Virus record (IMG/VR): IMGVR_UViG_3300036791_000703
Coordinates: 1 to 64,000 of that record
Source: a virus
Strand: one strand, 5' to 3'
DNA: 64,000 nucleotides
Shown here: in pieces, positions 5,839-29,852 of the stretch
Position numbering within the stretch: position 1 is the stretch's first letter
How the letters are laid out: each line of letters starts with the position of its first letter
Translations under genes and position numbers: made by a program
Notes under the pieces: generated by a model
Databases searched by the model: none
Told to the model about the DNA's origin: nothing
What the model saw: only the letters and a program-made list of their open reading frames with translations

Positions 5839-7332
5839 GTGAATATCGATGTCCCAACCGAGCAGCTCGATCTATCGGATCGTTGCTGGCTCAATGGTCA
5901 GCTCGAAGCTTACACAGTCAGCGAGCCCATGTTCGCACGTCGGTCGTTCGCCCGCTATCGGCGGGTGATGCGTCCGAACATGCTGTGGGGTCGCTTCCCG
6001 CTCGAAGTGTCGAGGGCGCTGCAGTTTTTCTATCGTGACCTGATCGTCGGCAGGCGACCCAAGCTGGCGATCATGGCGCCGCCGCAGCACGGCAAGTCTC
6101 TCGCAGCAGAGGACTTTGTGTCGTGGTTGGCAGGCAAGGCACCGCATCTCAAGACGATCTATGCCTCCCATAGTGATGAGCTTGGGGTGCGGTGCAATCT
6201 CGGCGTTCAGCGCACCATGCGCTCGCCGCGCTATCAGTCGGTGTTCGAGACGACGATCGGCGACAAGGGCTTCCAGTGCAACACCGACATCGTCGAGTAC
6301 GGCGGCTATGGCGGGTCCTTTCGGAACGTGACGGTGAACGGCTCGATCAATGGCATGGAGCTACATCTCGGCGTAATTGACGATCCGGTGAAGGGTCGTG
6401 CCGAGGCCAACTCGCCGGAGCTGCGCAAGAAGATTTGGAATTGGTACACCGACGACTTTCGTCCGCGCTTCGCTGCCAACAGCGGCATGCTTTGGATCAT
6501 GACGAGATGGCACTTGGATGATCCGCTTGGTCGCGCGATCGAGAAGGAAGGTGACATCAAGGTTCTCAAGTTCAAAGCCATCGCCGACAAGGATGAGCCC
6601 GGCCGCCGCTGGAAGGGTTGCCCGCTATTCCCCGCGTTCAAGCCGCTCGATTTCCTCGAAGCGCAAAGGCGCCTGATGTCGGCGGCCTCGTGGGAAGCCG
6701 AGTATCAGCAAGAGCCGTATCTCGCCGGTGGCGGGATGTTTCCGATCGAGAAGCTCAAGGTCATTTCGGTGTTCGATCGTCATGAGATCGTCCGCTCGGT
6801 GCTCTCGGTCGACAAGGCTGGCACCCAGGATGGCGACGGCGCCCGCACCGCGATCGTGTTCATGCACCTGATGAAGAACAACTCGATCCTGATCGAGAGC
6901 GTCACCACCGGCCGTTGGGAAGCGCGCGAGCGCGAGGACATCATCAAGAAGGTCGCCGAAGTGTGCCGCTCGTCGCTTGCCGGCTTCTGCTACGACTTCG
7001 AGGTGGTGGTCGAGCAAGAGCCGGGATCGGGCGGCAAGGAGTCGGCCGAGGCGACGATCCGTAACCTGATGGGCTTCACCACCAAGGCGGTGAAGCCAGG
7101 AGCGCGGCAATCGAAGACGGTGCGCGCCGAGCCGTTCGCAGCGCAAGTGCAGGGCAACAACGTGTGGCTGGTCGCTGGCCGTTGGATACAGGACTTTCTC
7201 GAAGAGCTGGAGCCGTGGCCGTTCGGTCGAACGCTTGACCAGGGCGATGCCGCAGCGCAAGGTTTCAATCACCTGTGCGGCGGTCCAGCGTACGACCATC
7301 AATTCCGCGGGTGGCAGCCGGGGGCACCATGA
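5839..7332 (+). CDS. terL: terminase large subunit (packaging ATPase/nuclease)
   Basis: This 497-aa protein, with a GTG start, pumps phage DNA into the prohead and cuts it. Walker A is APPQHGKS (residues 80-87). Walker B is LGVIDD with Asp181 and Asp182. A coupling motif IMTRWH sits at 220-225. The C-terminal RNase H-like nuclease begins near VDKAGTQDGDG (Asp325). Length and order match terminase_6-type large subunits. Packaging strategy (headful or cos) cannot be read from this alone. The stop overlaps the ATG of the Tat-signal gene. Confidence 0.93.
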   Translation: MNIDVPTEQLDLSDRCWLNGQLEAYTVSEPMFARRSFARYRRVMRPNMLWGRFPLEVSRALQFFYRDLIVGRRPKLAIMAPPQHGKSLAAEDFVSWLAGKAPHLKTIYASHSDELGVRCNLGVQRTMRSPRYQSVFETTIGDKGFQCNTDIVEYGGYGGSFRNVTVNGSINGMELHLGVIDDPVKGRAEANSPELRKKIWNWYTDDFRPRFAANSGMLWIMTRWHLDDPLGRAIEKEGDIKVLKFKAIADKDEPGRRWKGCPLFPAFKPLDFLEAQRRLMSAASWEAEYQQEPYLAGGGMFPIEKLKVISVFDRHEIVRSVLSVDKAGTQDGDGARTAIVFMHLMKNNSILIESVTTGRWEAREREDIIKKVAEVCRSSLAGFCYDFEVVVEQEPGSGGKESAEATIRNLMGFTTKAVKPGARQSKTVRAEPFAAQVQGNNVWLVAGRWIQDFLEELEPWPFGRTLDQGDAAAQGFNHLCGGPAYDHQFRGWQPGAP

Positions 7333-8423: not shown

Positions 8424-11400
8424 GTGACTGTCCTCAGATACGCCATCATCGATCCAAGCTTTGATGGTTCTACGTTCGCCGGGCAGACCGTCTATCCCTA
8501 CAACAACATCCCCACCGTCACGCTCGATACCGTGCAGGCGCAAGCCTATCTCGATGTCGGCACCATCGTGCCGCTCAATCAATGGATTTGGCTACGCTAC
8601 TGGCTGCCGGGGGCGGTGGGTCCTGTCGGGCCGCCGGGACCGGCCGGCACGAACGGGTTTCCGGGGCCGCAGGGTCAACCGGGCATCCCGGGAATCCAAG
8701 GTCCTGCGGGATCGACCGGGGCAACGGGGCTCGCTGGCCCGCCCGGTCCTCCTGGCGGCCCTCCTGGCCCTCCTGGCGTTGACGGCCCGGTTGGCGCTAC
8801 CGGCCCTGCTGGGCCAGCTGGCGCAGCTGGCGCGGCCGGTCCTACGGGCTCCGCCGGCCCGGCTGGTCCCGCTGGTCCCGCTGGCCCTCCTGGCTCCGGG
8901 TCGCAAGGTCCGATCGGTCCTGCCGGTCCCGCCGGTCCGCAGGGCGCTATCGGCCCAGCTGGTCCGGTCGGTGCGTCGGGCTCGGGCTGGACCAACATCA
9001 ACGACATCCTGTCGACGCCGTTGGTCAGCGGTGAGACGCCCGACACCAAGTCAGGCAACGTGGCCGCACTCTATACGTTCGGGCAGAACCTCGGCGCCAA
9101 GGGGATCGCGCCGGAGATGCCGATTCCGATCATCATGACGGTCGGCAACCCGACGCTCATACAGGTCGATGTCAACAACACGCTCGGTTCGAACAGTGGT
9201 TTGACCCTCACCTCGGCGGTGCACTTCTTCAAACCCAATCAGCCGTTCTACCTCGTCGGGTCGGCCGGTGCGGTGCTGCCGAGCGGCGTTCAATTCAACA
9301 CGATGTACTACATCACGTCGGCCAATCTGCTGGCGACGACATTCAGTTTCTCGACGACGAACAACCATGGCAGCACCGGCCTCGGTGGTGCGGCTTACTG
9401 GACGGCCGAAGGTGCGCCGGTCAACACGACAGGCGCGGTCAGCGGTCAGATTTGGATGGTGCTGTGCAATCGGGATGTGAACATCTTCATCCCGCAAGGT
9501 TCTTATCTGGGCGGCCGGTACGGCGACAACACCGTTCCAAATCTGGCGCTGACGCCGAACGGTGTGTCGCGCATTCGGTACTGGGCTTATGGCGCCATAT
9601 TCGACACCAAGGTCAGCCTTGGCACGAACGCGCAAGGGGCCATGCAGGACGCCAAGACGTGGGCGTCGAACACGATCTACGATCTGGTCAACACCACGCC
9701 GACCGAATCGAACGTGGCGGGGCTCGATGCGATCGTGCGGATGCAGACGCCGGCGAACGCCGCCAACTATTACATCGGCGCCTGGGTCACGTTCCTCGCT
9801 GGCGATCTGCAGAACGTCTACGGCAAGCTCAACTCCGGTCCGCCGAACAATCAGTTTCAGGAGTTCAAGCGGATCAAGGCGATCAACTACTCGACCGGCG
9901 ACATCACCTTCGACGGGCCGTTGAAGTGGGTCTACCTGTCGACCCTTCCGCAGCTGTACAACGCGCCGGGTAAAATCTGCGGCGGTTGCGCGCTGATGGC
10001 GCTGATGCATCCATCGTGGGACGTTGACGTTGAGATTCGCGGCGGGCGGTGGATCGGTCAATCGACCGTGCAGAACGCGCGACGCTTCAAGCTGATCGAC
10101 GCGGTATTTCAAGGTTTCGGCAATTCGCCCAGTCATGCGGCGCCGAGTGTTGCTCAGTCGTACGACTACGAGAATTGTACGTTCGGTCCCAGCAACTCGT
10201 CTGGGGTCGAGTACATGGAAGTCGACAAGATGCTGGAAGCTCTCAGCATCGACAATTGTCGAACCTCGAATCAATACTCGATCGCGTTCTTCAGTCCGTC
10301 GGTACAGATCGCCAGGATCAACAAGTTCATCGGCGCCCATATCTCCGGTTCGCCGCGCGCGCTCAATCTGACGAATTCCATCGTTCAGGATTTCAAGGTC
10401 GGGCCGTTCATCGGCGTGACCGATGTCTGCAACGTGCAGAACAATCACTTCAGATATTTCGACATGAACGGGCGCAACGACGACGCGCCCTATCTGCGTC
10501 CGGAGAGCACGCCCGGCGCCGGCAACGGCAACGACATGACGCTGCTGGCCAACTGGTCATTCAACGGTGGGACGCTGACGCGAAACATCGCGAATGGCAG
10601 TCCCGGCTACGGTCAGGCGATGTGCGCCGAGATGATCGGTGCCAAATATTATATGACCGACGCCGCTAATCAGTATAAATATTTTCAGAACATGGGTTCG
10701 CCGTTCACCATCTTGAACATGAAGATGGACGGCAGCGGCAACTTCTCGATGGACACGTCGCTGCAGGCGATCCCGGGTCGCCAGACCTCGGCGGTCGTCA
10801 CCATCGACTTGACGGCCATGGTGACGTGGCCCGGACATAACCTGCCTGCCGGCACGCCGTTGGTGCTCACCACCACCGGCGCAATGCTCACCGGGTTGAA
10901 GGCCAGCACGATCTATTGGCTGATCAATCCGACCGCCAGCACTTTCCAGCTGTCGGCGACGGTCGGTGGCTCGCCGATCGCGGTGTCGGGGACGCAGAGC
11001 GGCATCCAGACCTGCTACGCCAATCCGCTGATGTTCAGGCCGCATCCATGCGGCAGCTTCACCGCCATGAGCAATCAGGGTTGCGCCTCGATCATCGACC
11101 ACAACGGCGCCATCGACGAGCCGTTGTTCTCGCGGCTGAAGCGAGGGTTCGTCGGCAGGCAGACGAGTTACAATCCGGCGGGAATGCAGGCGCCCCAAGG
11201 GAAGCTGTGGGGCTACCTGAAGAACATGATCATCAACGTCGATCAGCCGGCGACGGCGGGGACGCTGAACATCAACGTCATCGGTTTTACCCAGCCCAAT
11301 CTTCTGCTCAGCGTGTTCTCGCAGACCATCGACATCACTAAGCGCGGCATCCGCACCATCGGCAGCACCGGCGTGACCGGACTGCAGGGCGCCGACGCGC

Positions 11401-11621
11401 TGGTCGCCTACCCCGATTGGCTCAGCGGCATGGTGACTTTCACCTGGACCGGTCAGCCGACCGCCATGGTCAACAGCGCGGCGATCCAGCTGGAAGCGTA
11501 CAGCGATCAGGGCATCACCAAGTTCGGCAACATGATGGGTGCACCGCCAGAAGGCACCAATGGCTACACGTGGCAGTACGCCCACGACGGCGTCATCCAG
11601 TCTTACGAAGCGCTACCCTAG
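8424..11621 (+). CDS. collagen-like tail fibre / adhesin with beta-helix
   Basis: This 1065-aa protein has a GTG start after GGGAG. Residues 1-60 form a head domain ([16 protein letters not shown]) shared with the 14368-16260 product and probably anchor it to the particle. Residues 63-188 are Gly-X-Y collagen repeats. Residues 190-1065 are mostly Asn/Gly-rich strand ladders of a parallel beta-helix type, with two 'YYI/YWL' modules (about 238-312 and 787-862) related to those of the 29856 fibre. It likely binds host surface or decorates the virion. A strong terminator follows. Confidence 0.75.
8610..8987 (+). repeat. collagen-like Gly-X-Y coding repeat
   Basis: About 42 near-continuous Gly-X-Y triplets with many GPP, GPA and GAA units lie in frame within the fibre gene (residues 63-188). 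Such repeats trimerise in phage fibres. The DNA is very GC-rich and internally repetitive, so copy number may vary between isolates or be misassembled. Confidence 0.85.
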
Positions 11622-11716: not shown

Positions 11717-12619
11717 ATGAGCCTCGCCTTTGACGCAGCCCGCCGCTCGGTTGATCCGACCGGCACCTCGAAACTGCGCGGCAAATTTCGAAGCGATCTG
11801 CAGCTGCGGTTACGCATGCTGAGAGCCCAGATGCGGGTCGCGATAGTGGAGCATGATGTTCTTGCGTTGGGTCGCGGCGGCATCATGTCTTACCACCCGC
11901 CGGACGTACGCCTGCGCGCATTCACGCATTGGCTTGAGGTCGCCGTCGCGAGCCTCGTCGCCGGGCATTGGGTGCGCGAGTACATCGTGCGTGCGTGCGA
12001 AGCTGGTGTGGCGGCAGCGGTGAAGGAGCTGGGGCTAACCATCACCGTTGCCGCCCATCAGGCAAACAACTTGCTCGAAGAGCAGACGGTGAACGAGATC
12101 GCTGGCATCGGTGACGCGGTGATCCAGCAGGTCACCCGCTGCGCCATGGTGGTGATCCGTCGCGGCATGAAGGCGCCGAAAGCCTACGGGTTGCTGGCGT
12201 CGACGTTCGATAAGGTGGCGCTGTCGCGCACCAAGGCGCTGGCCGACATCGCGGTGGTGACCGCGTTCAACCATGCTAAGCTCGACACCTACGAGGCAGC
12301 CGGCATAACGGAGGTTGGAGTTGACCCAGAAATTCATCCAGGGACCGTACGGCCCCATACCGGTGACGCAGCCCGGAAATTCAACCGTACGACTGTCAGG
12401 CGGCGCGGTGCTTGGTCAAAGGCCAAGGCAGTTGGTGTCCGTACAGCCGGGGACCAAAAAGTTTGCATCTTCTGCGAAGAGATCGCCGAAGGCGCTCCCT
12501 ACACGACCGATGAGGCGCGGGAGCTGATCCCAGCTCACCCACATTGCAGATGCAGTTTCTTTCCGTGGTACGACAAACGCTTTCGTCGTGACAGTTCATT
12601 GGCTGGCGGGCTGTCATGA
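11717..12619 (+). CDS. MuF-type minor head protein
   Basis: This 300-aa protein ends with the MuF/SPP1 gp7-like signature: CIFC (Cys250, Cys253), an insert, and HPHCRC (His274-Cys279). The family associates with the portal, is packaged in the head and helps DNA exit or morphogenesis. N-terminal helices (residues 15-180) fit the usual helical region. An RBS (ACGGAGG) precedes the ATG and the terminator at 11700 lies just before, so a new transcript or read-through is needed. A second MuF-like motif occurs in the 26700-27320 product. Confidence 0.75.
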   Translation: MSLAFDAARRSVDPTGTSKLRGKFRSDLQLRLRMLRAQMRVAIVEHDVLALGRGGIMSYHPPDVRLRAFTHWLEVAVASLVAGHWVREYIVRACEAGVAAAVKELGLTITVAAHQANNLLEEQTVNEIAGIGDAVIQQVTRCAMVVIRRGMKAPKAYGLLASTFDKVALSRTKALADIAVVTAFNHAKLDTYEAAGITEVGVDPEIHPGTVRPHTGDAARKFNRTTVRRRGAWSKAKAVGVRTAGDQKVCIFCEEIAEGAPYTTDEARELIPAHPHCRCSFFPWYDKRFRRDSSLAGGLS

Positions 12620-14227: not shown

Positions 14228-14367
14228 ACACGCGCGGAAACGCGGTTTCGTGTTGTGCGTGGCAACATCAATGACTTAGCGGGAAACTGCCTCGCCATTG
14301 CTGGGAGTTAAGCATCAAATAAATCCAAAACATGCTTTTCGGCAGCTCGTCGAGGAGATCATCAACC

Positions 14368-16260
14368 GTGAGATATCAGGTCCTCGACCCCAACTTCAGC
14401 AAGGGTAACCTCGGCGGGAATCTGATCACGGTCATCGACGGCATCCCCACCGTCACCATGACGGAAAAGCAGGCGTCGTATTGGCTCACCCAGGGCGCGG
14501 TGTTGCCGCTCGGCGCTGCCGGTCAACTCGATTATCAGCTGGCCGGTCCCAATCTCGTGGTCGCCGCGCTCGGCATCGACGTGCCGAACTTCCACCGGAT
14601 GATAAACTTCCCGACGGCCGCTCCGGACCTGTCGGTTGCTTCGCCCGATATCGGAACGCCGCTCTGTCTTCAGGTGATCCGTGCGCTCGGTGTCGACTGC
14701 GCTCCACTGGCGATCGATACGCTCGCCCTGCATCAGGTCTGCCAGCTTGGCGGCGTGGGGATGGAGGTCACGTCACCGGACTTCACGAAGCCGCCGCTGT
14801 GCGGCATGTACTACAAGGTCACCGCGATCGGGATGGCCACGGCATCGCCCGCGATCGGTGCCCCGGCGGTTCGTCAGTTCGCGCTGTGCGTCGCGACGCC
14901 GTTGACGGTGGGATCGCCGGATGTCGGCGTCACCACGGCGCCGACCCTGACTGCGACGGCATGGGCGCCGCCGCAGCTCGCCGGTGCCTCGGCAGCGCTG
15001 TTCGCTGATTTCGCCGGCAACAACTTTGTGGTCAATAACTCGCTATACAACACCTTGGCCAGTTGGCTCACGGCGCTCGGTGGAGCGTATTCCCGCGCCG
15101 GGGTGGCGAGCTACCTCGCCGGTGGCATCTTCAACACGGCTCCGGCCAACACGCCGCGCTATCCGACCGATCTCGCCGGCATTCCACTCGGGCTGCGGCT
15201 GACCGGGCCGGTGACCAACCTGATGCCGCATTCGGAATACGACAGCACGGCGCCATTCTCGGCTAGCGGCGCGACGTTGACGCCGAATGCCGCTGCAGCC
15301 CCCAATGCCGCCGCCACGATGACGGCAGCGTCTTTCATTCCGACGGCTGTCAATACCACGCATAACGTCGCCTTCTCCGCCGGGATCGGGACGCAGACTT
15401 CTGGCAACATCTACACCTATGCGATTGCAGTCCAGCCAATTGGGCCGAACTATTATTATGCTTATATCGATCCAAGAAATGCATATACCGAATATACCGT
15501 CTTCAGCTTCGCCGGTGGCGTTGCCACGGTTTCTCTGAACGTCGGTGGTGCCGTCGGTTTCGTTATTCCGCTCGCCAATGGCTGGTTCATCTGCGGCACA
15601 ACGATCACCAATCCGATCACCGGCAATCGCACCGGTTCGTGGAACGTGTGTACTGCCACCGGCGGACGCACGGTTCTTTGCGATGGCGTGTCCGGTTGGA
15701 ACCTGTGGGGACAGAACTACACCCAGACCAACTTCCTCGCCGATTACGTGCCAACTGCGACTGCCACCGCGACCCAGGCCGGCGATCTCCTGTACTGGCC
15801 GACCTCGCCGTGGCTGGCAGCGAGCGGCACCTGGGCGCACAGCGGTTCGGCGGCGCTGGCGTTGGTGACGCAATACGTGATGGGCACCGACGACAACACC
15901 GGCAACTTCGTCGCTGGCGCCTCGATGCTCGGCCGGCTCGGCAGCGGCAACAACAGCATCGGCTTCGGCGGGCAGTCGTCGCTCGTCAACTACGCGGCCA
16001 GCACCATCATCAGCAAGTACAAGTACGCTTGCATCTACGATGTGCCGACCACGCTGCAGCGCGTGGTCGATGTCAATGGCGGCAGCAGCGAGAACAACAC
16101 CTTCGATTACACCGGCACCGGGACGGTTCGATTCACCTACGGGAATATGCGGACGCTGAACCCAGTCTCGCCGCTCTACGGCAACGTGAAGACGCTTGCC
16201 TACTGGCCGCAGGCGGCGACGGTGGCTCAAGCCGTTTCAATGTTAGGAACGCTCCAATGA
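14368..16260 (+). CDS. virion-associated protein with VGSPxIGxP motifs and carbohydrate-binding-like C-terminus
   Basis: This 630-aa protein starts at GTG 14368 after GAGGAG. The first 50 residues (RYQVLDPNFSKGNLGG) are paralogous to the start of the 8424 fibre. Four short motifs follow: SVASPDIGTP (~88), EVTSPDFTKP (~132), ATASPAIGAP (~155) and TVGSPDVGVT (~180). Residues 215-630 are strand-rich with jelly-roll-like spacing, similar in feel to phage concanavalin-like or tail-spike head domains. It is probably a surface or tail component. Its stop overlaps the portal start (ATGA), so it is made together with the head genes. Confidence 0.65.
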   Translation: MRYQVLDPNFSKGNLGGNLITVIDGIPTVTMTEKQASYWLTQGAVLPLGAAGQLDYQLAGPNLVVAALGIDVPNFHRMINFPTAAPDLSVASPDIGTPLCLQVIRALGVDCAPLAIDTLALHQVCQLGGVGMEVTSPDFTKPPLCGMYYKVTAIGMATASPAIGAPAVRQFALCVATPLTVGSPDVGVTTAPTLTATAWAPPQLAGASAALFADFAGNNFVVNNSLYNTLASWLTALGGAYSRAGVASYLAGGIFNTAPANTPRYPTDLAGIPLGLRLTGPVTNLMPHSEYDSTAPFSASGATLTPNAAAAPNAAATMTAASFIPTAVNTTHNVAFSAGIGTQTSGNIYTYAIAVQPIGPNYYYAYIDPRNAYTEYTVFSFAGGVATVSLNVGGAVGFVIPLANGWFICGTTITNPITGNRTGSWNVCTATGGRTVLCDGVSGWNLWGQNYTQTNFLADYVPTATATATQAGDLLYWPTSPWLAASGTWAHSGSAALALVTQYVMGTDDNTGNFVAGASMLGRLGSGNNSIGFGGQSSLVNYAASTIISKYKYACIYDVPTTLQRVVDVNGGSSENNTFDYTGTGTVRFTYGNMRTLNPVSPLYGNVKTLAYWPQAATVAQAVSMLGTLQ

Positions 16261-19200
16261 ACGTCGCCGCGCCCAACATTCTGCGCTTCCCGCGGGCGTG
16301 GTTCGATTCCACGCGCGACAGCTTCCAGAACTTCCTCGCCGGCTTCGGTGTGCCCGGTCGCGACAAGGCGGTGTCGCAGTTCTGGGCGTACTATCCACTC
16401 ACCCTCGATCAGCTCGAAGCCGCCTATGCCAGCGACTGGGTGGCGCGCAAGATCGTCGAGATACCGGCGTTCGACGCGACGCGATCCTGGCGGCTGTGGC
16501 AGGCCGACAAGGAGGATCAGAAGAAGATCGAGGAGGCCGAGCGCAAGTACAATCTGCAGCGCAAGCTGCTCGACGCGTTGATCAAGGCGCGGCTCTATGG
16601 CGGCGCTGCGATCATCCTCGGCGTCGATCAGGGCACGTTCCAAGAAGAGCTGCAGATCGACAAGGTCGGCAAGGACGATCTCAAGTTCGTCCATGTGGTG
16701 AGCCGCTATTCGCTCTCCGCCGGCCCGACGGTCAAAGAGATCACCTCGCCGTGGTACGGCCATCCGACCTACTATCAACGCGCCAACACGGTGACGGTGT
16801 CGGCGCCCGGCGGCGTCGAGCCGATCGGCGAGCCCACCATGGGGCAGCTGCCCGGCGACATGCTCTACATCCACCCGAGCCGCGTGATCCGTCTCATCGG
16901 GCTCGACTATCCCGATATCGAGCGGGCGCCGGACGCTTGGGGTCTCACCGTGCTGCAGCCGGTCGCCGATGCGCTCAAGGCCGCCGGGATGGTGACATCG
17001 TCGATGGCGACGATGATCGCCGAGGCCAAGCTCGACATCATCAAGGTGCCGGCGCTGACCGCGAAGATGGGGACCGCCGAGGGCACCCAGAACGTGCTCA
17101 GCCGGTTCATGCAGACCAACGTCGCCAAGTCGAGCATCAACGCGCTGCTGATCGACAAAGAGGAGGAATGGGAGCGCCATCAGCTGCAGCTGTCGAACTA
17201 CGACAAGGTGCTCAGTTCGTACTTCCTCTTGTGCTGTGCCGCCGCCGATGTGCCGGCGACGCGCTTCATGGGCCGCGAGCCCGCAGGTCAGAACGCCACC
17301 GGCGACAGCGACACGCGCAATTACTACGACCGTCTCGCGTCGGATCAGAAGGTGCGCCAGACGCCAGCGCTGCGCCCGCTCGACGAGGTGCTGTTGCGCT
17401 CGACCTTTGGCAGTCGCGACGACGCATGGCGCTACGACTGGAACGCGCTGTGGCTGATGTCGGATGCCGAGAAGGCCGATGTCGAATTGAAGAAGGCACA
17501 GGCGCATCAGGTCGATGTCAACGCTGGTCTCATCTCTCCGCACGTGCTGCAGATTGGCCGCGAGAATTCACTTGTGGAGTCGGGCTTCCTGTATCCGGGC
17601 ATCGAGACTGCTATCGAGGAGGAGGCTGATTGGGACGCCGAGGAAGGCGTACAGCAAGCGCGCACCAAGGGAATGACCGATCCCAACGACCCTGATGCGA
17701 TCGAGCATGCGGCGAAGATGGGCAAGAAATACGGCAACATCGATCCGAACGATCCGAAGACGATCGCCGCCAAGGCCAAGGCGCTGCCGAAACCGCCGCC
17801 CGGTGGCGGCAAACCCAACGGTGGGGGAAAGTCGAATGGTGCCGCGCGCGACGCGCGCAATCCCTTTCGCCGTCTCGCGCGCGACGCGCCGCCGTCGGTA
17901 GTCTTCACTCCCGAGCTGCACCCGCACGATCCCAAGACCGGGCAGTGGGCAACCACGGTCACCGGCGATCCGTTGCAGATGAATCCCGAGGTCGCCACCG
18001 TCGGCGGCGACGAATGGAATCAGAAGACCGGGGCGCGTCTGGAATTCGAGTATGCGCGCGTCAAGCCGGTACTCGACAAGCTCGCCAGTGATCTGGTCGA
18101 GGGCCAAGCTGAAGACACGCCCGATGATCCCGACGAGGACGAGGAGCAGCCCTATACGCCAGAGAGCTGGGATGAGCTGGGCGACTCGCAGCAGGAGGAA
18201 GCCAAAGAGAAATGGATGGAGGCCACCTACAGCGATTACGAGGACAGCGAAATCCAGAGCCAAATCGACAGCGGCTATCTGCTCGAACAGGGCAAGCGCG
18301 AGGCGTTGCAGGATTGGAAGGATGCGCCGACCAAGCATTCGACCACGAGCGGTGAAACGCTCGAATGGCCAGACTGGGCGAGCGAGGCGGTCGACGAGGT
18401 GATGGAAGAGCATGCCGAGGCCGGCAAGCGCATTCGCTTCACCAAGGATCAAATCCTCAAGGCGTTGACGATCGATGCCGGTAAGTACGACGAGTTCGGT
18501 GGCGACGGCAGCAGCGATCCCGATGTCGACTTCGACGACAGCGAGCTGACCGATCCGGCCGGCTACGATCCGAGCGAGGTATTCCCTGGCTTCGAGAAGC
18601 TGGAGCCGTCGAGCTTCCTCAAGGAGGACGAGCGCGACGACATCCGGAAGGCGATCACCGACGCGTTCAACAAAGAGGGCGAGAGCAAAGCCGACAAGCT
18701 CGATGCGTCCGATTACATCGACAAGAGCACCATTCAGGATTACCAGAGCGAAAGTTGGGATCAGTATTCGGACAAGCAGAAGTGGGAATACGCCGAGCAG
18801 TATCTTGAGCTTGGCGAGCAAGAGAGCCATCGCGAAACGCCAGAGCCGACCCAGGTGCTGATGCCGGCGCACTTCGATCCGATGGGCAACCCCAACGTTG
18901 ATGACGATTACAAGAACGATGCCGACTACAAGAACACCAAGTCACTCGGCCGGGCGATGTCGATCGCGCGTGCGGTGCAGGTGAGCAAAGAACGCGACAT
19001 CGACACCGACGAAGAGACCGTCCGCGACATGGACAGCACTCTGTGGCGCGATTGGAAGTCGTCCTCGACATCACCGAATGGCAAGCTGCTGCAGCTCGCC
19101 ATCGCCGACGAGCTTGGTGGTCGCCTGCACGAGGGGCGCATCGGTGATCCGGCGGAGGTCGAGAAGACCAAGCGCGAGGGCAACAAGTGGGGCGGCTACG

Positions 19201-19628
19201 ACGCAGTGAAGGCGTACATCCGCGGCAAGTGGGAGACCACGCAGTTCCTGCTCGACAAGGCCAACATGCAGACCGTCGGGTTGTGGCGTGGCGTTGGCCT
19301 CGATGTCACGAACGAGCGCACCGAGACTGTGACCGCGGGTCCGCACGTGCCGGCATTCAGCAAGCTGCCCGACACCTCGATCCGTCGCAACGGTGCGGCG
19401 TCGTGGACGATCAAGCGCTCGGTCGCCAATAACTGGTCGCGGGTGACGATCCGTGCCCAGGTGCCGCGCACTGCGATCGTCTCGGTGCCGGTCTATGGCC
19501 AGAACGTCCACAACGAGCACGAGGTGATCGTCGCTGGCACGGCGTGGAAAAATTGGGATGCGTGGAATGGTCCGGCGCCATCCTTCGAAGATGTTCCAAT
19601 GGCGTTGCACGCGGGAGCCACGCCATGA
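16257..19628 (+). CDS. portal protein (DUF1073) fused to an ADP-ribosyltransferase-like domain
   Basis: This 1123-aa protein is about twice a usual portal. Residues 1-480 match the DUF1073 portal family (start NILRFPRAWFDSTRDSFQNF, then YGGAAIILG, and RFMGREPAGQNATGDSDTRN), forming the dodecameric DNA gate. A Gly/Pro/Lys linker follows, then a long acidic helical region (560-960). The last 150 residues resemble an R-S-E class ART: Arg1011 in LWRGV, Ser1049 in ASWT, and ExE at Glu1087/Glu1089 in NEHEVIV. Packaged ARTs (such as T4 Alt) modify host proteins on infection. Activity here is inferred. The ATG overlaps the upstream stop. Confidence 0.8.
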   Translation: MNVAAPNILRFPRAWFDSTRDSFQNFLAGFGVPGRDKAVSQFWAYYPLTLDQLEAAYASDWVARKIVEIPAFDATRSWRLWQADKEDQKKIEEAERKYNLQRKLLDALIKARLYGGAAIILGVDQGTFQEELQIDKVGKDDLKFVHVVSRYSLSAGPTVKEITSPWYGHPTYYQRANTVTVSAPGGVEPIGEPTMGQLPGDMLYIHPSRVIRLIGLDYPDIERAPDAWGLTVLQPVADALKAAGMVTSSMATMIAEAKLDIIKVPALTAKMGTAEGTQNVLSRFMQTNVAKSSINALLIDKEEEWERHQLQLSNYDKVLSSYFLLCCAAADVPATRFMGREPAGQNATGDSDTRNYYDRLASDQKVRQTPALRPLDEVLLRSTFGSRDDAWRYDWNALWLMSDAEKADVELKKAQAHQVDVNAGLISPHVLQIGRENSLVESGFLYPGIETAIEEEADWDAEEGVQQARTKGMTDPNDPDAIEHAAKMGKKYGNIDPNDPKTIAAKAKALPKPPPGGGKPNGGGKSNGAARDARNPFRRLARDAPPSVVFTPELHPHDPKTGQWATTVTGDPLQMNPEVATVGGDEWNQKTGARLEFEYARVKPVLDKLASDLVEGQAEDTPDDPDEDEEQPYTPESWDELGDSQQEEAKEKWMEATYSDYEDSEIQSQIDSGYLLEQGKREALQDWKDAPTKHSTTSGETLEWPDWASEAVDEVMEEHAEAGKRIRFTKDQILKALTIDAGKYDEFGGDGSSDPDVDFDDSELTDPAGYDPSEVFPGFEKLEPSSFLKEDERDDIRKAITDAFNKEGESKADKLDASDYIDKSTIQDYQSESWDQYSDKQKWEYAEQYLELGEQESHRETPEPTQVLMPAHFDPMGNPNVDDDYKNDADYKNTKSLGRAMSIARAVQVSKERDIDTDEETVRDMDSTLWRDWKSSSTSPNGKLLQLAIADELGGRLHEGRIGDPAEVEKTKREGNKWGGYDAVKAYIRGKWETTQFLLDKANMQTVGLWRGVGLDVTNERTETVTAGPHVPAFSKLPDTSIRRNGAASWTIKRSVANNWSRVTIRAQVPRTAIVSVPVYGQNVHNEHEVIVAGTAWKNWDAWNGPAPSFEDVPMALHAGATP

Positions 19629-19931: not shown

Positions 19932-21800
19932 ATGCCACTCACCGCGAAGGGCGCCAAAATCTTGGCCGCCATGAAGAAGCAATATGGTGAGACCGAAGGT
20001 GAAAAAATATTTTACGCCTCGAAGAACGCCGGCACCATCACCGGCGTCGATCGGCTGGCGCTGCTGTTGCGAACCACCTCGCTGGCCGACGCGTGGTCTG
20101 AGCAAGCGCGCGAGGCAGCGCTCGCTGCACGTCACCACGGTCTGAGCCGCGAGGAGTCCGAAGAGGTCGGCTCGTCCTACGAAGGCGCGCTGCGAACCAA
20201 CCGGCGCCGCGAGCGCGAGGCGCGGAAGAACTGGCGCGAAATCGCGAACGAGGTCGAGCGGCTACGCAAAAAGAAGCGTCACGACGCCATCGTCGGCGAC
20301 GACACCTACAATCCCGAAACCGGCGAGATCGAATACGTGAGCAGCCGCCGCACGGGTGGCACCGTGGTCGAGCGCGATCCGTTTGGGCGGGAGGTCTCGT
20401 CCTTCGAAAAGAGTAAGCGCAAAACCGTCCGGCGTGATCCGTTCGGCCGCGAGATCGCGACCTTTGAAGAGGATCGTCAAATGTCCACCCCACTGTTCTC
20501 GATGTTGTCGAGCACGGCTCTGCCGCAGTTCAGCGTTGTCGGCGATGCCGCCCCCAAGGTCACGATGGTGCAGCTCTGTGACCACATCGAGATAGATGAT
20601 GGCGCCAAGGTGTCATTCACCACCGACGGCTTTCTCAAAGCCCAGCCGCGGATCGCGCGAACCGGGATTCAATTGTACGGCGGCGAAGAACTCGGCATCG
20701 CCGACATGGATGTGGTGCGCGTCTATCGGCCGGAGAAAGCGGTGTTCGATAACGCCACGGTCAAGAGCTACACGCACCTGCCGATGACGCTCGAACATCC
20801 GCCCGCTCCGGTGACGCCGCAGAACTGGAAGGATCACGCCACCGGCGAGACCGGTGACGAGGTGCTGCGCGACGGCGGTACCGTGCGCGTGCCGTTGATG
20901 CTGCGCGACGCCAAGGCCATTGCGGCGTGGAAAGACGGTACCAAGAAGCAACTCAGCGTCGGCTACAGCTGCGATCTCAAATGGCAGTCTGGCGTGGTCC
21001 CGTTCGGCCAGCCGGGTGCCGGTGAGACCTACGACGCCATTCAGGAAAACATCAGGGCAAACCATCTAGCGCAGTGCGCCGCTGCGCGAGGCGGACCCAT
21101 CCTCACTATCGGCGACAAACAGGAGAACCACATGAACCTCAAGACCGTGATGGTGGATGGCATCGCCTGCGAGATGACCGACACCGCTGCCCAGCTGGTG
21201 CAGAAGACCATCGCCATGCTGAACGATCAGGTGGAGAACTTCAAAAAGAAGTCGAAGGAATCCGAGGAAGAGTGCAAGGACGCCATCGAGCACATCAAGA
21301 AGCTCGACGGCGAGATCAAGGCCAAGGACGCCGAGATCGTCGTACTCAAGAAGGGCGTCGAAGACGCTAAGCTCAAGCCCGAGCAGCTCGATGCGCTGGT
21401 GAAGGATCGCCAGATCGTGTTCGACTCAGCCCGTCGCATCCTCGGTGACGGCTACAAGTTTGAGGGCCGCACGGTCGAGCAGGTCCGCCGTGACGCCGTC
21501 GACAAGCATCTCGGCGACACCGCCAAGGGCTGGGACGACAATCAGGTCCGTGCCGGCTTCGACAGCATTCTTTCGCTGATGCCGAAGGACGGTCGCACGA
21601 TCCATCGCCCTGGCTCGATGGATCACGCGGTGTCGGCATTCTCTGGTCGTCCTGGCTGGGCGAGCGGCGCGCCGGTCGATCCGCAGGCGGTCCGCGATGC
21701 CGCCTACGCCGACAGCGTTCGCGAACTCAACGACGCGTGGAAGCCGCAGGCGACCCGTGACGCCGAGGCCGCCGTTCGCCGCGCCGCTGGCGGCTACTGA
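19932..21800 (+). CDS. prohead protease (DUF2213-type) with scaffold-like C-terminus
   Basis: The 622-aa protein begins with the PLTAKGAKILAAMKKQYG...FYASKNAGTITGVD signature seen on phage head proteins. After a basic helical linker with two copies of RRDPFGRE-type repeats (Asp149 and Asp169), residues 180-395 match the DUF2213 head-maturation protease (THLPMTLEHP, KKQLSVGYSCDL). A long coiled coil (about 421-493) and a C-terminal tail resemble an internal scaffold cleaved during maturation. Catalytic residues are not assigned with certainty. Position just before cement and capsid genes is as expected. Confidence 0.75.
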   Translation: MPLTAKGAKILAAMKKQYGETEGEKIFYASKNAGTITGVDRLALLLRTTSLADAWSEQAREAALAARHHGLSREESEEVGSSYEGALRTNRRREREARKNWREIANEVERLRKKKRHDAIVGDDTYNPETGEIEYVSSRRTGGTVVERDPFGREVSSFEKSKRKTVRRDPFGREIATFEEDRQMSTPLFSMLSSTALPQFSVVGDAAPKVTMVQLCDHIEIDDGAKVSFTTDGFLKAQPRIARTGIQLYGGEELGIADMDVVRVYRPEKAVFDNATVKSYTHLPMTLEHPPAPVTPQNWKDHATGETGDEVLRDGGTVRVPLMLRDAKAIAAWKDGTKKQLSVGYSCDLKWQSGVVPFGQPGAGETYDAIQENIRANHLAQCAAARGGPILTIGDKQENHMNLKTVMVDGIACEMTDTAAQLVQKTIAMLNDQVENFKKKSKESEEECKDAIEHIKKLDGEIKAKDAEIVVLKKGVEDAKLKPEQLDALVKDRQIVFDSARRILGDGYKFEGRTVEQVRRDAVDKHLGDTAKGWDDNQVRAGFDSILSLMPKDGRTIHRPGSMDHAVSAFSGRPGWASGAPVDPQAVRDAAYADSVRELNDAWKPQATRDAEAAVRRAAGGY

Positions 21801-21855: not shown

Positions 21856-22713
21856 ATGACCGTCGTCGTCCAGACGAACTATTCCCCGCAAATTCGTCCC
21901 GCGGTTGAAGGGATGATCGCGGACATGATGCCTTCTGCCATCGTCACTCGCCTGTGCGAGACGATGACCGGCATTCCGTTCGGCAAAGCGGTGTCGCAAG
22001 GCACGCAGTCCGCCAAGGGCGTGCTGCTCGGCGGCGCCAGCAAATACCAGGGCGTCACCGTCATCGACAACACCCTGTCGATCTCGCCGCTCGATCCGTA
22101 TTCGAGCACGCTCAACCCGGTCGATGCCTACGGCTATCAGACCAACGTCGCGGTGATGACCCGTGGCCACCTCTGGGGCAAGGCGTGGTCGGTGATCGCG
22201 CCTAACGATCCGGTGTACTACGACGCCGCGCTCGGCACGCTCGGCAATGCCGCGGCGGGCCAGTCGGCCAATGGTTCGATCCAGTTCTCACAGCAGCCGG
22301 CCGACGGCAACACCATCATCATCAACGGCGTCACCATCACTTTCCACGCCTCTGGCGCGACCGGTGACGACATCAACATCGGCCCGACGCTCGGCGACAC
22401 CGTTGCGGCGCTGGCGACCCACCTCAATGGATCGGCCACCACCGGCATCAGCGCGCTGGTCTATGGCGCCTATCCGCCGTCGCCCGGTGGCTCGGCGCAG
22501 GGCTCCGGCTCGAACACGCTGACGATCTCCGAGAAGACCCCCGGCACCGCCGGTAACGCGATTGCGATCAGTGCCGCCGGCACGCCCGGCGCCACCGCCT
22601 CGGGCGCTACGCTCTCGGGCGGCACTGCGGCCTCGATCCTCATCCCCAATGCGCATTGGATTGACGCCGCGGTGTCCGGTCAGCTGGCGAAGGTCGCGCT
22701 GTTCGGCGGTTAA
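21856..22713 (+). CDS. head decoration (structural cement, Gp24-like) protein with inserted domain
   Basis: The opening (VVVQTNYSPQIRPAVEGMIA, then GIPFGKAVSQGTQSAKGVLLGG) matches the structural cement protein family that locks capsid lattices. The length, 285 aa, exceeds the usual ~150 because residues about 148-258 carry an extra domain (NGVTITFHASGATGDDINIG...). A diverged copy of this domain is found in the tail sheath of this window. The AAAGGA ribosome site fits. Very probably virion surface-exposed. Confidence 0.75.
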   Translation: MTVVVQTNYSPQIRPAVEGMIADMMPSAIVTRLCETMTGIPFGKAVSQGTQSAKGVLLGGASKYQGVTVIDNTLSISPLDPYSSTLNPVDAYGYQTNVAVMTRGHLWGKAWSVIAPNDPVYYDAALGTLGNAAAGQSANGSIQFSQQPADGNTIIINGVTITFHASGATGDDINIGPTLGDTVAALATHLNGSATTGISALVYGAYPPSPGGSAQGSGSNTLTISEKTPGTAGNAIAISAAGTPGATASGATLSGGTAASILIPNAHWIDAAVSGQLAKVALFGG

Positions 22714-22787: not shown

Positions 22788-23762
22788 ATGTTCGGTATCG
22801 GCCACAACAGCGGCATGTTTCTTCGCGACATGCCCAACGAGCAAGCCGCTCTGAGCTTTCTCGTTTCGCAAATCACTTACATCGAACCAACCGTCTACCG
22901 GATAAAATATCCAGAACTGTTTTATCGTGAGTTAGTGCCGGTAGATTCCACTGGTACTGAATGGGCTAAGAGCATCACCTTTTTCAGTATCGATCAGGTT
23001 GGTGCCGCGGATTGGTTTCACGCCCAGGCCGCTGATATCCCGCTCGCTGATGTGACGCGTGCCAAGCACGAGGTTGCGATCGAGATGGGGGCCATCGGCT
23101 ATCGTTATAATACGGAGGAGCTGGCGCAAGGGATGATGATCCCGAACTTCAGCCTTTCGACCGAGCGCGCATCAGCAGCGCGTCGTGCTTCGGAGGAGTT
23201 TCTGCATAATATCGCCATCTACGGCAATACCCAAAAGAGCTGGCATGGTTTGATTAACAGCCCTGGTATTCCGGTTATCAATACCCCGCATACCTGGGCT
23301 TACGACATGGCGCAAGCGCCGCCGCTGGTCCAGAACCTGATGAACGATGTCAACTTCGCGCTGACCAACATCTGGCAGTCGACCTTGGGCATCGAGATGT
23401 CGGACGTGGTGCTGTTGCCGTTCTCGGCGATGAGCCAGATCGCGATGGCGCAGCTGCCTGCCACCTCGATGAACATTCTGCAGTGGATCAAGCAGAACAA
23501 CATCGTCACCCAGCAGACCGGCCAGCAGATCGAAATCCGTGCGGTGCGCGGCCTCGATACCGGTGGCGTCTCGGGGAACGGCCGTATCGTCGCATACAAG
23601 CGCGATCCGGAAATCATCAAGATGCACGTGCCGATGCCGCATCGCTTCCTGCCAGTGTGGCAGCGCGGGCCGCTCGTCTATGACGTGCCCGGCATCTTTA
23701 GAGTCGGCGGCCTCGAAATCCGTCGGCCGGCGACCATGCGCTACGTCGACGGCGTGTGCTGA
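22788..23762 (+). CDS. major capsid protein (DUF2184 type)
   Basis: This 324-aa protein starts after AAGGAG. It begins MFGIGHNSG, a tag common in alphaproteobacterial proteins, then DUF2184-family features: YRIKYPELFYRELVPV, EEFLHNIAIYG and a C-terminal EIRRPATMRYVDGV. The family forms HK97-fold capsid lattices. Order protease-cement-capsid supports it. A hairpin (CCCCCG...CGGGGG, 22737-22756) lies before the gene and a terminator after it, so the capsid message may be separately set. Confidence 0.85.
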   Translation: MFGIGHNSGMFLRDMPNEQAALSFLVSQITYIEPTVYRIKYPELFYRELVPVDSTGTEWAKSITFFSIDQVGAADWFHAQAADIPLADVTRAKHEVAIEMGAIGYRYNTEELAQGMMIPNFSLSTERASAARRASEEFLHNIAIYGNTQKSWHGLINSPGIPVINTPHTWAYDMAQAPPLVQNLMNDVNFALTNIWQSTLGIEMSDVVLLPFSAMSQIAMAQLPATSMNILQWIKQNNIVTQQTGQQIEIRAVRGLDTGGVSGNGRIVAYKRDPEIIKMHVPMPHRFLPVWQRGPLVYDVPGIFRVGGLEIRRPATMRYVDGVC

Positions 23763-28817: not shown

Positions 28818-29852
28818 ATGTCAGTGGCGACAAATCTAGTTTCAACGACACCGACACGCTTTCCGGTCATCCGTCCCGAGCTATTGCCCCCAATGGCGGT
28901 GCTGGAGAACATCTCGACCGAGTCGATCATCGCCAATCGCATGCAGCAGCTCGTCACGTTCTGGGCACAGAATGATCCGCCCAATTCGGCGCAGTATGAT
29001 GTTGGTGGTTTAGAGTTCGATCCAATTAGAATTAACCAAGAATTAAACGCATACTTCGAGCTGATGCTGCGCGACCGCGTCAATCAGGCGTGTCGCGCGA
29101 TGACGCTGGCGTTCGCTGTCGGCAGCGACCTCGACGCGATCGGATCGCGATATCCATACGGCGTTCCGCGATTGATCTTCCCTGACGGCTCGACCGAGAC
29201 CGACGACGCCTATCGCCAGCGGTTGTGGCTGTCGCCGTCGATCTTCTCGCTGTCGGGCACCGGCCAGGGCACCTTCGAGAGCTACGTGTTCTGGGCGCTC
29301 TCGGCGCCGATGCCGCCCGGCGAGGACTCGATCAAGCACGCCTCGGCGCTCACCAAGCCCGGCACCGGCTACGTCTACATCCCGATCATCAGCTCGACCT
29401 GCTCGAACCCGAACATGCTGTGGTCGTCGTCGCCGGACGGCACGCTGTGGACGCTGGTCACCGGCACCAAGCCGTTGCCGGATGCCGCCCAGATCAACGC
29501 GGTCCAGCAGTTCATCACCGCGCCCAACACCGCACGCAAGGGATTGACCGACGTGGTGGTGACGATGGTGCCGAAGATCATCAACGTCGAAATCAGTTGC
29601 GACGTGTGGCTGTTTCCTGGCGTCGACATGCTCGGGATGATGGGCGTGTTGGCAAAATCGGTCGGCGATCTCGTCACGGCGCTGCGCTGGCTCGGCGCTG
29701 ATCTCACGCTGCTCGCGCTCGATGGCGCGCTGGCCCAGGCCGGCGTCTACGACCGCATCACCTATGCGCCGACCGCCGATGTCGTCGTCGGCACCGACGG
29801 CGTGGTCAACATCACCGGAGTGAGGCTGCGCTACCGCGGGACCGGAGAGTGA
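28818..29852 (+). CDS. baseplate protein J
   Basis: This 344-aa protein belongs to the baseplate_J family: ATxxxLDxIG-type sequence (AFAVGSDLDAIGSRYPYGVP), ETDDAYRQRLW and a C-terminal INVEISCDVWLFPG-strand region. It forms the baseplate wedge with W and I. Start ATG 28818 or GTG 28824, which is better spaced from GGGGAG. Follows W directly as in P2 and Mu. Confidence 0.75.
   Translation: MSVATNLVSTTPTRFPVIRPELLPPMAVLENISTESIIANRMQQLVTFWAQNDPPNSAQYDVGGLEFDPIRINQELNAYFELMLRDRVNQACRAMTLAFAVGSDLDAIGSRYPYGVPRLIFPDGSTETDDAYRQRLWLSPSIFSLSGTGQGTFESYVFWALSAPMPPGEDSIKHASALTKPGTGYVYIPIISSTCSNPNMLWSSSPDGTLWTLVTGTKPLPDAAQINAVQQFITAPNTARKGLTDVVVTMVPKIINVEISCDVWLFPGVDMLGMMGVLAKSVGDLVTALRWLGADLTLLALDGALAQAGVYDRITYAPTADVVVGTDGVVNITGVRLRYRGTGE

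What the first reader, a model, noticed from the sequence alone, without database searches (positions are those of the whole stretch)
16257..19628. Portal protein fused to a C-terminal ADP-ribosyltransferase-like domain
The portal reading frame continues without a break to a region where Arg1011 (LWRGV), Ser1049 (ASWT) and Glu1087/Glu1089 (NEHEV) appear in the order and spacing of R-S-E class ADP-ribosyltransferases. T4 Alt shows that ARTs carried in virions can modify host proteins on infection. A portal-linked ART would sit at the DNA exit channel, twelve copies per capsid, and may be released by cleavage in the acidic linker. The motif alone does not prove activity.
Basis: partly seen in the sequence, partly recalled or inferred. 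Interest (0 to 1): 0.85.

Follow-up and report, generated by a model that had tools for sequence, protein, structure and literature searches.

The report
Phage portal carrying an ADP-ribosyltransferase module
In this phage the ring protein through which DNA enters and leaves the head ends in a probable ADP-ribosyltransferase enzyme, which belongs to an unnamed family of about 60 phage relatives and is most likely carried in the virion to modify the bacterium at infection; this kind of virion-borne effector is known, the family is new.

Summary
Confirmed, with corrections. Window 16257-19628 is one unbroken 1123-aa ORF: a PF06381 portal (Pam3 portal homologue, E 2e-77), a Pro/Gly tail, then a ~550-aa module carrying R1011, S1049 and E1087-x-E1089. 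Curated family libraries give no match above threshold, but 59 IMG/VR loci and two Bradyrhizobium genomes encode relatives; R, S and ExE are strictly invariant in 36 distinct sequences. A 28-row AlphaFold2 model puts R on the first strand, S on a later one and ExE at a strand start, as in ARTs. Best links: a Bacillus phage SP-15 protein with the same motifs (HMMER 3e-7, Foldseek 9e-6) and a sub-threshold DRAT match. No solved ART matches significantly.

The 'acidic linker' is a conserved acidic domain that accompanies the ART in nearly all relatives. The module is mobile: joined to two unrelated portal families or to other effector domains (Nudix, GNAT, Acb1, ParB-like, second ART), or near stand-alone by the protease-capsid gene. 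Portal relatives carry Acb1 (anti-CBASS), or nothing, in the same place. The C-terminus should point into the head. Portal-fused ARTs were already reported as a class, so this is a new family of a known kind. Activity, packaging and cleavage are untested.

The parts
16257..17606 (+). Portal domain, aa 1-450 (PF06381; homologue of the solved Pam3 portal 8hds and E217 gp19)
   Evidence: Pfam 3.5e-90; PHROG portal 2.8e-108; PDB 8hds E 2.3e-77
17607..17966 (+). Pro/Gly-rich tail, aa 451-570, holding the junction motif LHPHDPKTGQW (aa 554-564)
   Evidence: close portal relatives L008, L010, L011, L013 end in a similar Pro-rich tail without any effector
17967..18896 (+). Conserved acidic, mainly helical domain, aa 571-880 (27% D+E, pI 4.1)
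   Evidence: composition; accompanies the ART in nearly all relatives; helices in the AF2 model
18897..19625 (+). ADP-ribosyltransferase-type domain, aa 881-1123: N-terminal helical part, then the beta-rich catalytic core
19287..19289 (+). Arg1011 codon (LWRG), predicted NAD-binding Arg
   Evidence: invariant in A4; on strand 436-443 of the model
19401..19403 (+). Ser1049 codon (ASWT), predicted Ser of the R-S-E triad
   Evidence: invariant in A4; strand 478-481 of the model
19515..19523 (+). Glu1087-His-Glu1089 codons, ExE motif; Glu1089 predicted catalytic
   Evidence: both Glu invariant in A4; start of strand 519-522 of the model
19932..21800 (+). Next gene: DUF2213 / head maturation protease, candidate processing enzyme
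   Evidence: PHROG 530 E 3e-87, Pfam DUF2213 3.9e-43
11717..12619 (+). Separate head-morphogenesis (MuF-like) gene upstream
   Evidence: PHROG 758 E 7.1e-15; Pfam VG15 weak

Best explanation
A virion-borne effector carried on the portal. Twelve portal subunits each bring a ~62-kDa module (acidic domain plus R-S-ExE ADP-ribosyltransferase) into the head lumen during assembly. The module enters the host with the DNA, probably after being cut free by the head protease encoded next door, and transfers ADP-ribose from NAD+ to a host target at the start of infection, as T4 Alt does; the ExE form favours an arginine acceptor in proteins. The acidic domain probably keeps the enzyme soluble, silent or away from packaged DNA until release. 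Shown: the fusion, the family, motif invariance, the mobile-module architecture and head-gene context. Inferred: enzymatic activity, packaging, cleavage, delivery, target.
For: Single ORF, portal homology. 59 IMG/VR loci encode the module plus two Bradyrhizobium genomes; R, S, ExE conserved. AF2 model with mean pLDDT 79.6 over aa 571-1123, R on the first strand of the C-terminal beta region and ExE at a strand start. Foldseek hits to phage proteins at 9e-6 to 3e-5, further hits to proteins annotated as phage ARTs at low significance. SP-15 protein found by sequence profile (3e-7; hhalign 8.7e-7) and fold, with LFRG, SSFS and EAE. DRAT is the Pfam family matched by most members (3 of 36, best 0.00026, below the curated cut-off). 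The module lies beside a prohead protease/capsid gene in about half of the loci; attached to PF06381 and PF05136 portals. The same portal position holds Acb1 in Pam3 and a Rhizobium phage. E217 portal C-terminus projects into the head (PMC10329688); Mu portal C-terminus reported as probably cleaved (PMC11915804).
Against: No PDB chain matches significantly by fold or sequence; Pfam, PHROG and NCBIfam have no above-threshold ART match. T4 Alt, ModA and ModB comparisons are not significant (P 0.02-0.3). No virion data, no cleavage site, host unknown; model confidence in the catalytic core is only 62-88 in places.
Confidence: 0.72

Rival explanations
1. The domain is an active ART but is not delivered: it is cut off the portal during head maturation, or acts in the producing cell (late modification of host or phage proteins, or self-modification of the portal).
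For: Head protease is the next gene; Mu's portal C-terminal 124 residues are missing from the virion structure (PMC11915804).
Against: The same module is attached to two unrelated portals and is chained to other effector-type domains, which is hard to explain unless co-packaging matters; Acb1 occupies the same place in relatives.
Confidence: 0.15
2. An ART fold without transferase activity: a NAD+ or ADP-ribose binding, or purely structural, domain of the portal barrel or inner core.
For: No significant match to any enzyme of known activity.
Against: R, S and both Glu of ExE are invariant while much of the rest varies; close portal relatives do without the module altogether, so it is not needed for portal structure.
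Confidence: 0.1
3. A toxin or lysogeny trait directed at competitors rather than an infection-time effector, like MuF-linked polymorphic toxins of temperate phages.
For: Relatives occur in two Bradyrhizobium genomes, presumably prophages; MuF-ART toxins are described in temperate phages (PMC5576092).
Against: No secretion or immunity gene was recognised, though none was searched for systematically; the portal link points to the head; only 2 of about 85,000 species genomes gave a match.
Confidence: 0.03

Closest known systems
T4 Alt (virion-packaged R-S-E ART)
   Same: R-S-ExE triad in the same order; packaged and injected in T4
   Different: Not fused to the portal; sequence profile similarity not significant (P 0.024, motifs in register); no acidic partner domain recognised
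[quoted passage not shown] PMC9503650)
   Same: ART fused to a head or portal protein, proposed packaging and injection
   Different: This family matches no ART family above threshold, has a conserved acidic partner domain, and appears in multi-effector chains
Polyvalent proteins of phages and conjugative elements (PMC5512222)
   Same: ART chained with ParB-like, GNAT, metallopeptidase-like and other domains; near head genes
   Different: Polyvalent ARTs described there are H-Y-D (Tox-ART-HYD2); the R-S-E Alt clade was said not to occur in genuine polyvalent proteins
Pam3-type portal with C-terminal Acb1 (PF23474)
   Same: Homologous portal, effector at the same C-terminal place
   Different: Acb1 is a 2H-type phosphodiesterase that removes CBASS signals; the window has an ART there
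DRAT (PF07357), dinitrogenase reductase ART
   Same: Catalytic half aligns over the S to ExE region
   Different: Below the curated cut-off, no nitrogenase context, N-terminal half not matched
Bacillus phage SP-15 SP15_258 (469 aa, hypothetical)
   Same: Same helical part plus LFRG / SSFS / EAE; significant by HMMER and fold
   Different: Stand-alone, far from the SP-15 portal gene, function unknown

Membership tests
ADP-ribosyltransferase superfamily, R-S-E class | Arg on the first core strand | tested here: met
   R1011 invariant in A4, strand 436-443 of the model
ADP-ribosyltransferase superfamily, R-S-E class | S-x-S/T on the second motif strand | tested here: met
   S1049 invariant; S-x-T or S-x-S in the members aligned; strand 478-481
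ADP-ribosyltransferase superfamily, R-S-E class | [E/Q]-x-E ahead of the catalytic strand | tested here: met
   E-x-E in every locus aligned; start of strand 519-522
ADP-ribosyltransferase superfamily, R-S-E class | ART fold by structure comparison | tested here: inconclusive
   PDB none significant, two MTX holotoxin entries at E 7-8; BFVD best hits lack an ART name at 9e-6 to 3e-5, annotated ARTs at E 0.6-3.3
ADP-ribosyltransferase superfamily, R-S-E class | NAD+-dependent transferase activity | not testable with these tools
   Needs biochemistry
Alt/VIP2 clade | Significant sequence kinship with T4 Alt | tested here: not met
   hhalign P 0.024 against an 8-sequence Alt profile, motifs in register
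DRAT (PF07357) | Score over the curated cut-off | tested here: not met
   Window 13.9 bits against 25
PF06381 phage portal | Score over the curated cut-off and full-length match | tested here: met
   302.7 bits against 33.8, profile 2-356 of 357
Polyvalent proteins | Several unrelated effector domains in one polypeptide | tested here: not met
   The window ORF has one recognised effector. Relatives do meet it: Nudix L018, ART-PolyVal L069, GNAT L059, Acb1 L053
Virion-packaged injected effectors | Present in virion and delivered | not testable with these tools
   Inferred from the portal fusion

The most novel reading that the evidence does not exclude
The C-terminus of PF06381-type portals is an interchangeable loading dock for injected counter-defence enzymes: Acb1 in some phages, this ART in others, MuF plus a GNAT-like domain in another, nothing in close relatives. 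The conserved acidic domain and the HPRD..G.W junction would form a general cassette that lets effectors be hung on portals or other head genes and released into the host.
Probability: 0.3. Interest if true: 0.7.

Novelty: new member of a known kind. Interest (0 to 1): 0.5.

Why it matters
If active, it is a fixed-stoichiometry (12 copies) early effector whose delivery could be tested with simple virion proteomics. It gives an unregistered ART family a defined set of about 60 members, shows R-S-E type ARTs within polyvalent-style chains, and points to portal C-termini as a place to look for anti-defence enzymes.

Tried and rejected
Window C-terminus alone: no phage record, no PDB sequence match, first genome scan empty. 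AF2 with 3 sequences failed (pLDDT 45.6); 28 sequences worked. PDB fold search uninformative. hhalign against SP15_259 (unrelated control), the ART-PolyVal part of L069, T4 ModA, ModB and Alt: none significant. DRAT family search in 150 genomes of the Bradyrhizobium order found no DRAT to build a profile from, and the controls were silent too. Considered a frameshift or assembly fusion: rejected, two further contigs carry it. Considered that relatives with a short portal (L008, L010-L013) encode the module just downstream: not found in the fetched flanks. Independent origins of the PF06381 fusion: the tree suggests two but one origin is not excluded.

Full report
WHAT IS THERE. The reading frame 16257-19628 is intact and encodes 1123 aa. 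Its first 450 aa are a portal of the PF06381 family (3.5e-90; PHROG portal 2.8e-108), homologous along about 450 residues to the solved Pam3 portal (E 2.3e-77) and more weakly to E217 gp19. The window lies in a 66-kb IMG/VR virus record with a terminase (5839-7332), a MuF-like gene (11717-12619), a DUF2213 head maturation protease (19932-21800), an E217/Pam3-type cement protein (21856-22713), a major capsid protein (22788-23762) and a baseplate wedge protein (28818-29852).

THE FAMILY. With the window sequence alone, Pfam, PHROGs, NCBIfam, INPHARED and PDB gave nothing significant for the C-terminus. IMG/VR gave one 84% relative and, through the portal, a more distant one in L007. An alignment of the three found 59 IMG/VR loci (some are near-copies, and two are the contigs of L002 and L007), and a 36-row alignment found two Bradyrhizobium genomes out of 84,980 species. 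A divergent member searched in INPHARED also gave nothing. So the family is wide in environmental phages but not found in the cultured phage collection at tblastn sensitivity, apart from the distant SP-15 protein described below.

IS IT AN ART? In the 36-row alignment 41 of 233 window positions are invariant and include R1011, S1049, E1087 and E1089 (chance about 0.0008 for four random positions). Per-locus profile alignments show YRG-type, GAxSxT/S-type and ExE motifs in every unambiguous locus; L060, L063-L067 and L073 give two readings at the R or S site because of inserts or repeated segments. The 28-row AF2 model of aa 571-1123 has mean pLDDT 79.6; R1011 falls on strand 436-443, S1049 on 478-481, E1089 at the start of 519-522 in model numbering (aa minus 570), after a helical N-terminal part. 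Foldseek against viral predictions gives four hits under 1e-3, probability 1.00, none with an ART name, and low-significance hits to proteins named ADP-ribosyltransferase, PARP catalytic and PolyVal ART. The top hit, a 469-aa protein of Bacillus phage SP-15, was identified as SP15_258 by its length; it is significant by hhalign (8.7e-7) and by HMMER in a six-frame search of the fetched loci (3e-7) and holds LFRG, SSFS and EAE. DRAT is the only ART family in Pfam that rings, for 3 of 36 members, best 0.00026, below its cut-off. Solved structures do not match significantly; T4 Alt, ModA and ModB do not reach significance, though the Alt profile aligns R and STS in register. Taken together the ART assignment is strong from motif and topology, moderate from statistics.

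THE MODULE. Residues 571-880 are not a mere linker. This stretch is acidic (27% D+E, pI 4.1; all 28 aligned members are net acidic), mainly helical in the model, and detectable by BLAST in nearly all members that are long enough, portal-linked or not. L009, a portal with MuF and a GNAT-like region, carries part of the same acidic domain without the ART. A junction motif of the form HPRD..G.[WF] (LHPHDPKTGQW in the window) precedes the module in 23 of 45 members by pattern and, by eye, in looser forms in most of the rest; about 0.008 matches per stretch are expected by chance.

ARCHITECTURES. PF06381 portal: window, L002/L015, L007/L016, L024 and copies, L030, L052. Lambda-type PF05136 portal: L021. 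Others are linked to Nudix (L018), Acb1 (L053), GNAT (L059), ART-PolyVal (L069), a weak metallopeptidase match (L036) or a weak MuF match (L055). In L024, L028, L030, L042, L051, L052 and L059 a domain shared with the N-terminal part of the L020 protease-capsid gene lies in the same frame or contig; its signature ILDGHHTWA is ParB-like by inspection, with a weak PHROG ParB hit in L042. Many members are near stand-alone and sit just upstream of a gene coding for a fused S78 protease and capsid protein; counting the DUF2213 neighbours, about half of the loci show the protease-capsid gene beside the module, and the more divergent loci L060-L073 show none by this search. The module tree separates the window group from the L024 group, but a single origin of the PF06381 fusion is not excluded.

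THE SLOT. Among relatives of the portal, L008, L010, L011, L012 and L013 stop after a Pro-rich tail with no ART module in the fetched flanks. Rhizobium phage RHph_I72 (L003), Pam3 (L004) and L014 have Acb1 (PF23474, 1.9e-30 to 5.4e-29) at the same place. [quoted passage not shown] In Mu the last 124 portal residues are missing from the structure and thought cleaved by the head protease (PMC11915804). This places the window's module in the head lumen and makes release by the neighbouring protease plausible; neither was tested.

MECHANISM. Most likely an Alt-like early effector: brought into the head by the portal, freed, injected and used to ADP-ribosylate a host target. The ExE form suggests arginine as acceptor (general knowledge of R-S-E ARTs, not tested). 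The presence of Acb1 and other counter-defence type domains in the same slot or chain suggests, without proof, that the target may be part of a defence or of host takeover.

NOVELTY. [quoted passage not shown] Thus the kind is known. [quoted passage not shown]

Noticed in passing
L003:6001-7845, L004:2290-4137, L014:4501-6633: Portals of Rhizobium phage RHph_I72, cyanophage Pam3 and an IMG/VR phage end in an Acb1 anti-CBASS domain, in the place where the window has the ART.
   Followed up: partly
window aa 554-564 (17916-17948); before the module in most relatives: A junction motif like FDESxHPRDxxGxW/F-T-GGG precedes the module and other domains in these chained proteins; could be a processing or docking signal. 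Unexplained.
   Followed up: partly
L009:4501-8685: One 1394-aa frame joins portal, a MuF-like part, a GNAT-like region and the acidic domain without the ART.
   Followed up: partly
L053:3321-8576: One 1751-aa frame holds both the ART module and an Acb1 domain.
   Followed up: no
L020:5714-9130, L024, L028, L042, L051, L052: A ParB-like domain (ILDGHHTWA) is shared between protease-capsid genes and ART chains at about 52-73% identity.
   Followed up: partly
L081:41139-42548: Hypothetical protein SP15_258 of Bacillus phage SP-15 is a probable ART (LFRG, SSFS, EAE).
   Followed up: partly
L074, L075: Bradyrhizobium elkanii WSM2783 and Bradyrhizobium sp. BRP22 carry the module upstream of a protease-capsid gene; in WSM2783 it follows a DUF7178 domain.
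   Followed up: partly
L042, L046, L056, L059-L073: Members with insertions of up to about 200 aa or repeated segments inside the ART region.
   Followed up: no
window 8424-11621 and 14332-16260: A collagen-like tail fibre gene and a GTA-spike-fibre-domain gene lie upstream of the portal, among head genes.
   Followed up: no
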